Shown here: in pieces, positions 6,910-11,897 of the stretch | Layout: every line of letters begins with the position of its first letter | Position numbering within the stretch: the first letter of the stretch is position 1 | Assembly (NCBI GenBank): GCA_024280855.1 | Contig: JAJRPG010000016.1 | Location: 1-33,450 of the forward strand | Direction of reading: 5' to 3' | DNA: 33,450 bases | From: Planctomycetota bacterium | Lineage (GTDB): Bacteria; Planctomycetota; Phycisphaerae; UBA1845 | Program-made: the position numbers and the translations under genes | The notes under the pieces: generated by a model | Database searches by the model: none | Told to the model about the DNA's origin: nothing | What the model saw: only the letters and a program-made list of their open reading frames with translations

Positions 6910-8978
6910 TGGATAATTCTGCAGACGTCGTACACCCACGGAAACTGCTGACTTGGCAACTGTTCGTAGTCATGGCCATTTTTGTTTCCGTTGTCAGCGT
7001 GTGCATCATCTTATCATACGTACGTCGAGTGTCAGATGCTGTGACGATGGCATCGGCAGTACGTGCTGCCGAATCCCGAACTCTCGCTATCAGGGAGTTT
7101 CGCACATTGTATTCTTCTGAGGTTGTCAAGCGAGTAAAGCCTCACGGTATCGCTGTCACTCACGACTACAAGCAAAAGGACCGGTCCATTCCCTTACCCG
7201 CCACTCTGACAATCATGCTTGGCAATAGACTGTCGTGCACCGATTCACAAGATGAAGTTCGCCTTTACAGTGCATATCCCTTCCCGTGGCGTGCCAACCG
7301 TGCACCACTCGACGCATTCGAGCAAGAGGCATTACGTCGATTCTCGGTCGACGCATCGAAACCGTACTATACGGTTGAGGAGGGAGAACACGGAATGCTG
7401 CTCAGGTATGCAACTGCAGATGTCATGCGAGAGAGCTGCATTGCGTGCCACAATTCGCACCCTGACACACCCAAGAACGACTGGAGGTTGGGGGACGTCC
7501 GAGGCGTTGTATCGACGACGATTGACCTCAACCCGCTTGCCGTCGCATCAACAAGCGAGCTACACGGTGTTCTCGTACTGCTGGTCGTGATGGCAGTAGT
7601 CGGCTGTGTCCTGTTCGTCACCGTGCTCATATGGCAAACCAAGCGGGCGTCGCGTGAGGCACGTTCCGCCGCCAATTATGAATACTCTCAACAAGAAAAT
7701 GTGAATTTAGAAAAAGCCAACGAGCAGTTGCGAGACATAAATAGGGCCTTGGAAGACGCGAGGGCCGAAGCGATAGTCGCGACGAAGGCCAAGAGCAACT
7801 TCTTGGCGAATATGAGCCATGAGATTCGAACGCCGATGACGGCGATTCTCGGATTTTCCGAGAGTCTGCGAGGCCGCGACCTTTCGGAAGCAGAAGCACG
7901 TGATTGCATTGATACCATACACAAGAATGGTGAGCACTTACTCGGACTCATCAACGACGTTCTCGACGTGTCCAAGATTGAAGCAGGCAAGCTAGAAGTA
8001 GAAACAATCCCCTGTTCTCCGCACACCGTTGTCGAGGAAGTAGTTGCACTCATGAAAGTGTGTTCCGATGCAAAGAAGATTGCGTTCAACACAGAGTACA
8101 TTGGGCAGCTACCCGAAACGATTCAATCCGACCCGATGCGGTTGAAGCAAATTCTCATCAATATCGTGGGCAATGCCATCAAGTTTACCGATGAGGGCGG
8201 CGTGCGGCTTATCACTCGATTCATACCGGGCAACGAGTACGAAGAGTGCGGGAGAGTGAGCGAACAGTGCCTGCAGTTTGATATCCTAGATACCGGTGTC
8301 GGTATGACGAAAGAGCAGGCCTCCAAATTATTTCAGCCGTTTACTCAGGCTGACAGCACGATGACGCGAAAGTTTGGCGGGACAGGACTTGGGTTAACCA
8401 TCAGCAAGGAGTTAGCTAAGCTGCTGGGCGGCAATATCAGCATCGTCGATTCCGAGCCCAGATGCGGCACTCGATTTCGCACGACCATAACGACCGGCCC
8501 GCTCGTTGGCGTCAAGATGGTCGATTCATTGATGGCGACTTCAACACCGGAAACTGCCCCGCCGCCTGAGAATCTGTGCACTGGCAAACCGCTAGATTGC
8601 CGAGTCCTTCTAGCCGAAGACGGACCGGACAATCAACGGCTGATTTCCTTTATACTCAAGAAAGCTGGTGCTGAAGTCATTATCGCAGAGAACGGACAAA
8701 TCGCAGTCGATGAAGCCACAGCAGCTATTAGTCAGGGCAAGCCGTTTGACGTCATCCTGATGGACATGCAGATGCCCGTGCTTGATGGGTACAAAGCCAC
8801 GATGGCGTTACGGAATCAAGGCTATGAAGGGCCGATTATCGCGTTAACAGCTCACGCGATGGCTAGCGACCGAGAGAAATGTATTAACAGTGGTTGCGAC
8901 GATTATACGACCAAGCCTATCGACCGAACAACACTTATCCAGATAATTCAATCGCAGCTCCTTGCCGTCCGTCATTGA
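6909..8978 (+). CDS. Hybrid histidine kinase with periplasmic c-type heme (DUF3365-like) sensor
   Basis: This is a 689-residue sensor kinase. Domains in order: membrane helix 13-37; periplasmic sensor about 40-215 containing the c-heme motif CIACH (177-181) followed by NSHPDTPKNDWRLGDVRG, as in the Tll0287/DUF3365 heme-sensor fold; membrane helix 219-242; short coiled coil 255-295; HisKA with phospho-acceptor H304 (NMSHEIRTP); HATPase with N-box near 419-423 and G-boxes DTGVGM (461-466) and GGTGLGL (490-496); and a C-terminal receiver with D619 and K669. It probably reports redox state or a diatomic gas through the covalent heme. ATG 6909 is chosen because AAGGGG lies about 8 nt upstream and it overlaps the HTH stop; an in-frame ATG at 6798 lies inside the HTH gene. 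No separate response-regulator gene is adjacent. Confidence 0.9.
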   Translation: MDNSADVVHPRKLLTWQLFVVMAIFVSVVSVCIILSYVRRVSDAVTMASAVRAAESRTLAIREFRTLYSSEVVKRVKPHGIAVTHDYKQKDRSIPLPATLTIMLGNRLSCTDSQDEVRLYSAYPFPWRANRAPLDAFEQEALRRFSVDASKPYYTVEEGEHGMLLRYATADVMRESCIACHNSHPDTPKNDWRLGDVRGVVSTTIDLNPLAVASTSELHGVLVLLVVMAVVGCVLFVTVLIWQTKRASREARSAANYEYSQQENVNLEKANEQLRDINRALEDARAEAIVATKAKSNFLANMSHEIRTPMTAILGFSESLRGRDLSEAEARDCIDTIHKNGEHLLGLINDVLDVSKIEAGKLEVETIPCSPHTVVEEVVALMKVCSDAKKIAFNTEYIGQLPETIQSDPMRLKQILINIVGNAIKFTDEGGVRLITRFIPGNEYEECGRVSEQCLQFDILDTGVGMTKEQASKLFQPFTQADSTMTRKFGGTGLGLTISKELAKLLGGNISIVDSEPRCGTRFRTTITTGPLVGVKMVDSLMATSTPETAPPPENLCTGKPLDCRVLLAEDGPDNQRLISFILKKAGAEVIIAENGQIAVDEATAAISQGKPFDVILMDMQMPVLDGYKATMALRNQGYEGPIIALTAHAMASDREKCINSGCDDYTTKPIDRTTLIQIIQSQLLAVRH

Positions 8979-9356
8979 AATGACTGTTGTGCCATCCTAT
9001 CGTCGCCCCCGAACTTACCATCGTAGAATTCGCATCGGCTATGTCAATTCTAGCTTTCCATCGAGTAATCAACTTGGTATGCCAATGATTGACCGTTCCC
9101 AAAACGTGTATCCGAGTGTAAAACGCCTGATCCTAATGCAACTTAATCCAGCCTTTGAGGTAATATGAGGCCAATTTCTAGGATATTAAGCTGCCATCCT
9201 CTACCGCAGTCATCAATGCTAAGTGCCTAGATTGCCGACTGCGCCAGGGTAGAGCGTGCTCATTACGCCGCTAAATAGAGCGAATCGCCATCATGGCCCA
9301 TAAACAAGGAGAACCAGCCATTCTGCTACTTAAATGCCAAAATAGCTCAAGTTCAC
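8979..9356. other. Intergenic region
   Basis: No gene or RNA is recognisable in these 378 bp. The 68-residue frame at 8962-9168 has no family features and starts inside the kinase gene. There is no clear terminator after the kinase. Confidence 0.45.
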
Positions 9357-9394
9357 TTGACGAGGGTTCGATATATCCTATTATCCGGATATAT
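9357..9394 (+). promoter_or_regulatory. Sigma70-type promoter overlapped by palindromic operator
   Basis: TTGACG (9357-9362), a 16-bp spacer and TATTAT (9379-9384) form a good promoter. ATATATCC (9371-9378) and GGATATAT (9387-9394) form a perfect 8-bp inverted repeat enclosing the -10 box. TATCCGGATA (9382-9391) is a second perfect palindrome within it. This is the arrangement expected for an ArsR-type repressor that blocks its own promoter. Confidence 0.65.
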
Positions 9395-9413
9395 GGAATC
9401 GTAGGATATGGTC

Positions 9414-10397
9414 ATGCAACTAACCACTGAACCGGAAATCGTATTCAAAGCCATGGCTGATGGTACGCGCCAGCGGACCCTGACCGTGCTGGCCCAGCAT
9501 GAGTTGAGCGTTTCCGAGCTGGTGGAAATCCTTCATCAGCCGCAATCGACGGTTTCGCGTCACCTTCGCGTACTTCGTGAAGCCGGCTTGATCCACGATC
9601 GCCGCGATGGGAATATGGTGTTGTACTCACTACCAACTAATGGCTCATCAACCAACGGCCATGAAGGTTCCTTATCGGACGATTTACTGAGTTGGGTCGC
9701 TCGTCAGCCAATGTCAGCCATCCTGGCTTCGCGCCTGGAATCGGTCCTTCAGCGACGTAAGGAATTAAGCGACAAATTCTTTGGACGCGTAGGCCGAGAG
9801 TGGGACGAATTACGCGAGCAGAGCTTTGGCTGCCAATTCCATCTGGAGGCATTCCTGGCTTTGCTGCCCCGGACGTGGACCGTAGCTGATGTGGGCACGG
9901 GGACAGGTTCTTTATTACCGACACTCGCGCGGCACTTTCAACAGGTCATTGGTGTTGACCCCGTAGAAGCCATGCTCGACATCGCGCGTCACCGCATTAG
10001 CCAAGCAGGGTGTAACAACGTCGAGCTTCATCAAGGCGATTTGTCGAAGCTGCCATTGCCAAGCGATACCATTGACCTGCTCGTCGCTGCGTTGGTGTTG
10101 CATCATGTACCGTCGCCTCAAGATGCCATCGCGCAGTTATTTCGCGTCGCGAGAGAGGGTGGCCGAGTGTTAATTATTGAGCAAGGCCCGCATCAAGAAA
10201 CATCGTTTTACGAACGAATGCAAGATCATTGGTGGGGCTTTGAGAGTGACAAGCTATGTCAGCAATTGCGTCAAGTCGGCTTCAAAGAAGTCATAGCTCA
10301 TGCGCTGACCACGGTCGTTCGTGCGAAAGACGCGCCGGAATTATTTGTGATTACAGCGACTAAAGGGTCACTTCGTGACAAGGGGTCGCTCTGTTAA
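9414..10397 (+). CDS. SahR-like regulator: ArsR HTH fused to a class I methyltransferase domain
   Basis: The 327-residue protein has an ArsR-type winged helix over about the first 75 residues (KAMADGTRQRTLTVLAQHEL, then LHQPQSTVSRHLRVLREAGL) and a class I SAM-dependent methyltransferase fold from about 140 on (VADVGTGTGSLLPTLA, IGVDPVEAML, VAALVLHHVPSP). This fusion beside ahcY is the arrangement of SahR, known in Proteobacteria as a SAH-responsive repressor of methionine-cycle genes. Here it would sense SAH/SAM through the methyltransferase pocket and control itself and ahcY. ATG 9414 is preferred: TAGGA (9402-9406) is 7 nt away, while the ATG at 9408 is too close. The assignment to SahR rests on architecture and neighbourhood. 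Confidence 0.82.
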   Translation: MQLTTEPEIVFKAMADGTRQRTLTVLAQHELSVSELVEILHQPQSTVSRHLRVLREAGLIHDRRDGNMVLYSLPTNGSSTNGHEGSLSDDLLSWVARQPMSAILASRLESVLQRRKELSDKFFGRVGREWDELREQSFGCQFHLEAFLALLPRTWTVADVGTGTGSLLPTLARHFQQVIGVDPVEAMLDIARHRISQAGCNNVELHQGDLSKLPLPSDTIDLLVAALVLHHVPSPQDAIAQLFRVAREGGRVLIIEQGPHQETSFYERMQDHWWGFESDKLCQQLRQVGFKEVIAHALTTVVRAKDAPELFVITATKGSLRDKGSLC

Positions 10398-10466
10398 ATA
10401 AAGTGAATCGTAGAAAACACAGCGTAACGCATCTTTGTTGATACGCGCTGAACCATTTAGGAGACG

Positions 10467-11897
10467 ATGATGACGACTGCAGTTCAGGATTTTAAGGTAG
10501 CAGACATGAGTCTAGCTGACTTTGGCCGAAAAGAAATTGACATAGCCGAACACGAAATGCCCGGCATGATGTCCACCATTGCTGAGTACGGCGGTAAAAA
10601 ACCTTTGGCAGGCTCCCGCATTATGGGTTCGCTGCACATGACCATCCAGACGGCTGTGCTTATTGAAACGCTGGCGAAATTAGGCGCTGACATTCGCTGG
10701 TGCAGTTGCAACATTTTCTCCACCCAAGACCACGCAGCCGCAGCTATCGCTAAAACAGACGTTCCTGTTTTTGCATGGAAAGGTGAAACGCTGGAGGAAT
10801 ACTGGTGGTGTACGAATCAGGCGCTCACCTTCCCCGAAGGAGGCCCCACGCTAATCGTTGACGACGGTGGTGACGCGACCATGCTCATTCATATGGGCGT
10901 CGAAGCTGAAGATGCGTTTGCTAAAGATGGCACGCTTCCTGACCCATCATCTACCGACGTAGAAGAGATGGCTGTCATTCTTACGCTCATTCGTGACGAG
11001 CTTCAAAAAGACCCACAACGATGGCACAAAGTAGCTAAAGAGCTTATCGGCGTGAGTGAAGAAACCACGACGGGCGTGCATCGTCTTTATCAACGAGAAC
11101 AAGATGGCAGCCTGTTGTTCCCTGCGATCAACGTCAACGATAGCGTTACCAAAAGCAAATTCGACAACCTCTATGGCTGTCGTCACTCATTGGTTGACGG
11201 CATCATGCGAGCGACGGACGTAATGCTAGCCGGTAAAATGTCAGTCGTTTGTGGCTATGGTGATGTCGGTAAAGGATGCGCTCAGAGTCTTCGCGCTCAA
11301 GGCAGTCGTGTCGTTGTCACCGAAATCGATCCTATCTGCGCATTGCAAGCTGCGATGGAAGGCTTTGAAGTTCGCACCTTGGACGAAGTCGTTGGCCAGG
11401 CTCATGTTTTTGTGACCACGACGGGCAACAAGGACATCATCATGGCTGCACATATGGGCAAGATGAGAGACCAGGCTATCGTTTGTAACATTGGCCACTT
11501 CGATAATGAAATCGACATGGCTGGTCTAAAAGATACGCCTGGCATTTCAAAAATGGAAATCAAGCCGCAGGTAGACAAGTGGACTTTTGCCGATGGCCAT
11601 AGCATCATCGTGCTGGCTGAAGGTCGTCTGGTGAATCTTGGCTGCGCGACGGGGCATCCGAGCTTTGTGATGAGTAACAGCTTTACGAATCAGGTCATCG
11701 CCCAGATTGAGTTGTTCACCAATACGTCGAATTATGAAAAGAAGGTTTATGTGTTGCCGAAGCATCTTGACGAAAAAGTTGCTCGCTTGCATCTGGACAA
11801 GCTCGATGTGAAGCTGACCAAGCTACGACCTGACCAGGCCTCGTATATCGGCGTGAGTGTTGACGGACCGTTTAAGCCGGAACACTACCGTTACTAG
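10467..11897 (+). CDS. ahcY: S-adenosylhomocysteinase
   Basis: This 476-residue cytosolic enzyme reversibly splits S-adenosylhomocysteine into adenosine and homocysteine, keeping methyltransferases free of product inhibition. Family motifs are clear: [25 protein letters not shown], the NAD-binding GYGDVGKG (263-270), and the C-terminal [11 protein letters not shown]. The length fits the bacterial form with its extra insert, here around 150-190. AGGAG at 10459-10463 serves ATG 10467, or ATG 10470 with better spacing. The 69-bp gap after the SahR-like gene has no promoter I can see, so the two are likely one transcript. A small hairpin (CAGCG 10420-10424 with CGCTG 10446-10450) lies just before the ribosome site. 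Confidence 0.96.

What the first reader, a model, noticed from the sequence alone, without database searches (positions are those of the whole stretch)
9357..9394. Palindromic operator enclosing the -10 box of a SahR-like gene
The ATATATCC-N8-GGATATAT inverted repeat surrounds the -10 box, and a second palindrome TATCCGGATA overlaps it. The layout suits direct blocking of RNA polymerase by a dimeric ArsR-type repressor. SahR regulation is described mainly in Proteobacteria, so a planctomycete version would extend its range.
Basis: partly seen in the sequence, partly recalled or inferred. Interest (0 to 1): 0.6.

Follow-up and report, generated by a model that had tools for sequence, protein, structure and literature searches.

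The report
SahR-type operator of the ahcY operon
A short symmetrical DNA sequence sits over the promoter of a gene pair that appears to sense and destroy S-adenosylhomocysteine, the waste product of methylation; similar sequences recur at the matching genes of relatives in several phyla, so it is very probably the regulator's own docking site, of a kind described so far mainly from Proteobacteria.

Summary
A perfect ATATATCC-N8-GGATATAT lies at 9371-9394 and encloses the -10 box (TATTAT 9379-9384; -35 TTGACG 9357-9362). It precedes a gene for an ArsR-type winged helix fused to an SAM/SAH-binding methyltransferase fold, followed by ahcY.

In 55 of 57 order loci with the regulator, the promoter carries the 24-bp, four-half-site palindrome ATCC-N4-ATCC|GGAT-N4-GGAT within 3 of 16 mismatches (reversed control 5-8). 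Here it is 9375-9398, with the fourth half-site decayed to GGAA. The right one recurs in 47 of 71 loci outside the order (Planctomycetota, Acidobacteriota, Gemmatimonadota, Anaeromyxobacter and others).

In this genome only the regulator-ahcY promoter has the site.

Best reading: a SahR-type, autoregulating, SAH-derepressed repressor. Binding, dimer number and effector are untested.

The parts
9357..9362 (+). -35 box TTGACG
   Evidence: TTGAC is conserved at this distance in the order (46, 38, 38, 38, 39 of 55 for T, T, G, A, C)
9379..9384 (+). -10 box TATTAT, inside the operator
   Evidence: TATTAT in 22 of 55 and TAATAT in 14 of 55 order sites at the same place
9371..9394 (.).
   Evidence: Exact
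9375..9398 (.). Operator: 24-bp four-half-site palindrome ATCC-TATT-ATCC|GGAT-ATAT-GGAA; consensus ATCC-N4-ATCC-GGAT-N4-GGAT
   Evidence: 55 of 57 order loci within 3 mismatches, reversed control 5-8; columns; up to 1 mismatch in 46 of 114 order genomes against 1 of 114 for the reversed control
9379..9402 (.). Right overlapping site (P2), TATTATCC-N8-GGAATCGT; right arm decayed in this genus; consensus TTYATCC-N8-GGATGAA outside the order
   Evidence: 47 of 71 non-order loci; the two arms covary, 0 of 2000 shuffles reach the observed score
9382..9391 (.).
   Evidence: ATCCGGAT is the most conserved part
9408..10397 (+). SahR-type regulator: ArsR winged helix (about 9-74), linker helices (89-140), SAM/SAH-binding methyltransferase fold (about 143-322). 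An ATG at 9414 behind an AGGA is an alternative start
10467..11897 (+). ahcY, S-adenosylhomocysteine hydrolase, same strand, about 70 bp downstream, probably co-transcribed
   Evidence: TIGR00936 above cut-off; same strand downstream in 56 of 57 order loci. A weak promoter-like pair (9 of 12) lies at 10375-10404

Best explanation
9375-9398 is the operator of the regulator gene just downstream. The regulator, a SahR-type ArsR/methyltransferase-fold protein, binds as one or two dimers to ATCC/GGAT half-sites that cover the -10 box and the probable start of transcription, so RNA polymerase cannot bind or open the promoter of the regulator-ahcY operon. When S-adenosylhomocysteine (SAH) accumulates it occupies the methyltransferase-like domain, the protein lets go, and AhcY is made and removes the SAH: a self-limiting feedback loop. 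Shown here: the sequence, its conservation and position, its link to the regulator, ahcY, metH and metF, and the intact SAM/SAH-binding loop. Inferred: binding by this protein, repression, SAH as effector, number of dimers.
For: Exact element over a promoter-like pair. 57 of 114 order genomes hold the regulator at E up to 1e-40. Of these 57 loci (the window's included), 55 have the 24-bp motif within 3 mismatches upstream; the reversed pattern gives 5-8 in the same 57 regions, the pattern itself 4-8 inside the 57 genes. ahcY follows on the same strand in 56 of 57; in the 57th the contig ends. Whole-genome scan at up to 1 mismatch: 46 of 114 genomes, 50 sites, 42 of them at the regulator; reversed control 1 of 114 genomes. 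Outside the order 47 of 71 named loci keep ATCCGGAT-N4-GGAT within 2 mismatches, reversed control 0 of 71; ahcY is downstream in 45 of 47 with and 10 of 24 without the motif. In 24 of those 47 genomes the 19 sites with up to 1 mismatch are at the regulator (13), metH (4) or metF (2). At the 7 metH/metF sites (one of 2 mismatches added) the extra left half-site, which was not part of the search pattern, matches ATCC in 24 of 28 letters. In the order, 6 of 30 metH upstreams hold an exact ATCC-N8-GGAT; five control letter sets gave 0, 0, 0, 1, 0. The metal-binding CVC of ArsR is absent in 28 of 28 aligned proteins (28 of the 57 were aligned), while G163, G165, T166, G167 of the SAM-binding loop are invariant. 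An alphaproteobacterial homologue next to metF has this protein as its best match in the genome (1.8e-33, next 1.2e-9). No Rfam riboswitch above threshold in the window or at metH, metK, metF of this genome.
Against: No binding, expression or ligand data. In this genome no site at metH, metF, metK. metF of the order: 0 of 30. One of the six order genomes with a metH site, G099, has no regulator at E up to 1e-40. 24 of 71 non-order homologues lack the motif, 10 of them with ahcY downstream. The alphaproteobacterial operator read here, ATAAAGATATCTTTAT, has other letters. Eight of 50 order-wide sites lie elsewhere; of the seven looked at, six are in reading frames or far from genes and one is at a classical ArsR gene. 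In one search, hits with 2-3 mismatches are much more frequent than control hits (about 105 rows in all, both strands counted, against 7); most of them were not looked at, so further targets or a composition effect are possible. In the order no axis shows significant covariation. Relatedness of the sequences is not corrected for in any count.
Confidence: 0.85

Rival explanations
1. Same operator and repressor, but the effector is SAM rather than SAH (SamR-like, end-product control).
For: Sequence alone cannot tell SAM from SAH; metH and metF are targets in relatives, as for SamR in Xanthomonadales (PMC4239095, passages read), and SamR too has a 24-bp palindrome.
Against: The constant target is ahcY (56 of 57); PMC4239095 says that SAM-cycle genes other than metK were not found in SamR regulons. 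Substrate induction of a hydrolase by SAH is the simpler logic.
Confidence: 0.1
2. The regulator is an ordinary metal- or arsenic-sensing ArsR fused to an active methyltransferase (ArsM-like), and the ahcY link is metabolic housekeeping.
For: The HTH scores over the NCBIfam metalloregulator model; one order genome has a similar site upstream of a classical ELCVCD ArsR (G019, L113); ArsM structures are among the fold matches.
Against: No CVC metal site in 28 of 28 aligned proteins; neighbours and further targets seen are ahcY, metH, metF.
Confidence: 0.03
3. The palindrome is merely -10 context or a chance inverted repeat, not a protein site.
For: Part of the conserved string is the -10 box itself; AT-rich palindromes arise easily.
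Against: Half-sites outside the -10 box are equally conserved; outside the order the -10-like TAnnnT sits just upstream with a 17-base spacer while ATCC-N8-GGAT stays; the motif recurs at metH and metF.
Confidence: 0.02

Closest known systems
SahR (ArsR family, SAH-responsive repressor of SAM-cycle genes; delta-, alpha- and some gammaproteobacteria)
   Same: ArsR HTH plus methyltransferase-like domain; gene next to SAM-cycle genes; palindrome at its own promoter; ATC-N10-GAT spacing, which PMC4239095 gives as common to gammaproteobacterial SahR and SamR; targets sahR, ahcY, metH, metF (the last two in relatives)
   Different: Other phyla; 24-bp four-half-site operator laid over the -10 box (PMC4239095 gives 20 bp for SahR); in this genome apparently a one-operon regulon; letters differ from the alphaproteobacterial operator read
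SamR (Xanthomonadales)
   Same: About 30% identical to SahR, 24-bp palindrome, ATC-N10-GAT (PMC4239095, passages read)
   Different: SamR regulons lack ahcY according to that paper; here ahcY is the constant target
ArsR/SmtB metal-sensing repressors
   Same: Winged helix; similar half-sites at one classical ArsR gene in the order (L113)
   Different: No CVC metal site; extra methyltransferase-fold domain

Membership tests
SahR | ArsR-family winged helix fused to a methyltransferase-like domain | tested here: met
   HTH_5 and Methyltransf_11 above cut-offs; AlphaFold2 model, pLDDT 91.7, shows both; methyltransferase fold Z 21.6, rmsd 2.2, over 169 residues
SahR | SAM/SAH-binding loop kept, metal-binding CVC absent | tested here: met
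   G163, G165, T166, G167 invariant; no Cys at 34 or 36 in 28 of 28 aligned
SahR | Gene linked to SAM-cycle genes | tested here: met
   ahcY downstream, same strand, in 56 of 57 order loci
SahR | Palindromic operator at its own gene with ATC-N10-GAT spacing | tested here: met
   consensus from PMC4239095. The published logo (its Figure S1) was not seen
SahR | Regulon includes metH, metF, metK besides ahcY | tested here: inconclusive
   metH and metF in relatives, none in this genome; metK of relatives not scanned
SahR | Orthology to a proteobacterial regulator of methionine genes | tested here: inconclusive
   A Rhizobium leguminosarum plasmid protein encoded next to metF has the window protein as clear best match in this genome, 32% identity. 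The other direction was searched in plasmid records only, no tree was built, and the experimentally studied Desulfovibrio protein was not at hand
SahR | Release from DNA by SAH | not testable with these tools
   Needs binding assays
SamR | ahcY not in the regulon | tested here: not met
   ahcY is downstream in 56 of 57 order loci
ArsR/SmtB metal sensor | Metal-binding cysteines in the HTH (ELCVCD; motif recalled) | tested here: not met
   ELSVSE or similar without Cys at 34 and 36 in 28 of 28 aligned

The most novel reading that the evidence does not exclude
SahR is not a proteobacterial speciality but an old SAH sensor spread over many phyla that reads one shared operator code, ATCC-N4-ATCCGGAT-N4-GGAT. 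The four half-sites are filled by two interlocked dimers on overlapping sites, giving a sharp switch; in the window's order the promoter has slid by about 5 bp so that the operator swallowed the -10 box, and in some lineages the regulon shrank to the regulator-ahcY operon.
Probability: 0.35. Interest if true: 0.5.

Novelty: new member of a known kind. Interest (0 to 1): 0.4.

Why it matters
It gives a testable operator, regulator and target set for SAH control in phyla with few known metabolic regulators, and a natural series (same regulator, operator over or just after the -10 box, one or several target operons) for studying how a metabolite-sensing circuit is rewired. A sensor for SAH could also serve as a biosensor part.

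Tried and rejected
Within the order no axis shows significant covariation (lowest P 0.0545, outer flank of the centred axis). Outside it P2 does (0 of 2000 shuffles), P1 weakly (0.0095 and 0.0075), and of the centred axis only the outer flank is borderline (0.0495; its other two tests 0.52 and 0.94). These tests ignore relatedness.

24-bp pattern at up to 3 mismatches: 9 against 6, next best 3 mismatches.

Riboswitch in place of a protein: none over gathering score in the window or at metH, metK, metF.

Second sites that are not methionine genes: two-mismatch hits in G125:C294, G117:C147, G135:C437, G121:C156 and three-mismatch hits in G135:C4 and C310 were read and show no metH or metF. Of eight stray order sites seven were read, G027:C57 was not. 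Most other hits with 2-3 mismatches were not read.

An error of mine: the 'metK' query was the longest open frame of L051, which is not metK, so those calls say nothing on metK. Redone with the right frame (own genome, and neighbours of the regulator in the 80 named loci).

Literature: searches. Many 'sahr' matches are an author's name (seen in passages of PMC7438776 and PMC4273665). One search (SahR with Planctomycetes) gave 4 papers whose titles are unrelated, not opened; one search gave none; the rows listed hold no 'sahr'. One table lists a Nocardia farcinica ArsR-family protein under the name SahR (PMC9972687, passage), so the name has been used outside Proteobacteria. Subscription papers, among them the original SahR paper, are not held; what I say of it comes from PMC4239095 and PMC8877191 (passages read).

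Fold search: absence of a solved SahR among the 50 rows shown proves nothing. Rv2258c, a full-length match, aligns with rmsd 18.8, so its domains are arranged otherwise.

Full report
What is in the sequence. ATATATCCTATTATCCGGATATAT stands at 9371-9394 without mismatch and is the only match with up to 3 mismatches in the window, where 0.14 are expected. The gene that starts at 9408 (or at the ATG at 9414, which has an AGGA in front) encodes 329 residues: HTH_5 at 18-63 and Methyltransf_11 at 161-256. ahcY follows at 10467-11897. No terminator-like site was found in 8950-10500; a weak promoter-like pair (9 of 12) at 10375-10404 could give ahcY some transcription of its own.

Conservation in the order. 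A search of 114 genomes of the order, the window's among them, found the regulator in 57 at E up to 1e-40. All 57 loci, the window's included, were read. Upstream of the regulator 17, 25, 9 and 4 loci have ATCC-N4-ATCC-GGAT-N4-GGAT with 0, 1, 2 and 3 mismatches out of 16, one has 4 and one has 5. The pattern read backwards gives 5 to 8 in the same regions, and the pattern itself gives 4 to 8 inside the genes. Column counts over the 55 sites with up to 3 mismatches (chosen by that criterion, so somewhat flattering) show all four half-sites strongly kept. In the window's genus (three genomes) that last half-site reads GGAA.

Promoter geometry. In the order a -10 of TATTAT (22 of 55) or TAATAT (14 of 55) lies over the spacer between the first two half-sites and into the second, and the best -35 match has a 16-base spacer in 37 of 55; 11 of 55 have fewer than 5 letters of TTGACA there. 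Outside the order the -35 lies about 6 bp further out and a TAnnnT box lies directly before the right-hand site, spacer 17 (column counts; both recognisable in 25 of 47). The operator stays while the promoter moves, which separates operator from promoter conservation.

Genome-wide specificity. At up to 1 mismatch the 24-bp pattern occurs in 46 of 114 order genomes, at 50 sites, 42 of them at the regulator; the reversed pattern occurs in 1 of 114. Seven of the other eight sites were read: one lies before a classical ArsR gene, the rest look accidental. In the window's own genome the next best site has 3 mismatches.

Other phyla. Nine that I judged to lie in or near the window's order, by identity or contig length, were set apart (L118-L125, L174). 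Of the other 71, 47 keep ATCCGGAT-N4-GGAT within 2 mismatches; the reversed core reaches that in 0 of 71. Titles of the 47 name Planctomycetota (Phycisphaerales, Pirellula), Acidobacteria, Gemmatimonadetes, Anaeromyxobacter, a Pontiellaceae bacterium and others; two of the 47 (L139, L143) are weak and lack ahcY downstream. ahcY lies downstream in 45 of the 47, and in 10 of the 24 without the motif. There the best symmetry is TTYATCC-N8-GGATGAA, whose arms covary.

Regulon test. In 24 of those 47 genomes, chosen by me, a pattern for the right-hand site found 19 distinct sites with up to 1 mismatch: 13 at the regulator, 4 before metH, 2 before metF; one further metH site has 2 mismatches. The reversed pattern at up to 3 mismatches gave 7 hits in the 24 genomes; the pattern itself about 105 rows at that laxness, both strands counted, most of them not read. 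At the 7 metH/metF sites the extra left half-site, which was not in the pattern, matches 24 of 28 letters. In the order, 30 of 100 genomes' metH loci were available (the best-scoring ones): 6 hold an exact ATCC-N8-GGAT (5 in family f8, 1 in f1), five control letter sets gave 0, 0, 0, 1, 0; of metF 30 of 96 were available, none with a site. The window's own metH, metF and metK have none. The regulon therefore varies by lineage and here appears to be one operon.

The protein. AlphaFold2 with 28 aligned proteins: mean pLDDT 91.7, pTM 0.74; residues 143-322 match SAM methyltransferases, among them TleD with SAH (Z 20.9, rmsd 2.5, 180 aligned). The ArsR metal motif CVC is replaced (SVS here) in 28 of 28, while the SAM/SAH loop is kept. 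An alphaproteobacterial relative next to metF (L212) has this protein as its best match in the window's genome, 1.8e-33 against 1.2e-9 for the next; the reverse was searched only among plasmids.

Mechanism. Most likely a dimeric or doubly dimeric repressor that blocks polymerase at its own promoter and leaves when SAH fills its methyltransferase-like domain, so that AhcY is induced by its substrate. That SahR does so in Desulfovibrio I take from PMC4239095 and PMC8877191 (passages). For this protein binding, repression and effector are inferred.

Judgement. It is a new member of a known kind, with a good comparative case and an open question on one against two dimers.

Noticed in passing
L113 (G019:C250:3200-7300), 2044-2067: The same type of palindrome (ATCCGTATATTCGGATAGACGGAT) lies about 20 bp before a classical ArsR gene with the metal motif ELCVCD, so the half-site may be an inheritance from metal-sensing ArsR operators.
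   Followed up: partly
L207-L213 (alphaproteobacterial plasmids): In the four annotated loci (L208, L210, L211, L212) the regulator homologue is followed by metF, in two of them also by a homocysteine methyltransferase and metH. Four of the seven loci (L207, L210, L212, L213) have ATAAAGATATCTTTAT upstream, the others a near version: a different letter code.
   Followed up: partly
L260, L262, L267, L268, L277, L287: metH of some order members has a single ATCC-N8-GGAT palindrome about 65-116 bp before the gene, mostly without the inner GGAT; one of these genomes (G099, L277) showed no regulator at the cut-off used.
   Followed up: partly
L105 and L125 (the same contig, family f5): The ahcY downstream of the regulator is only 36% identical to the window's, against 60-100% in the other order loci: a different AhcY type in the same operon position.
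   Followed up: no
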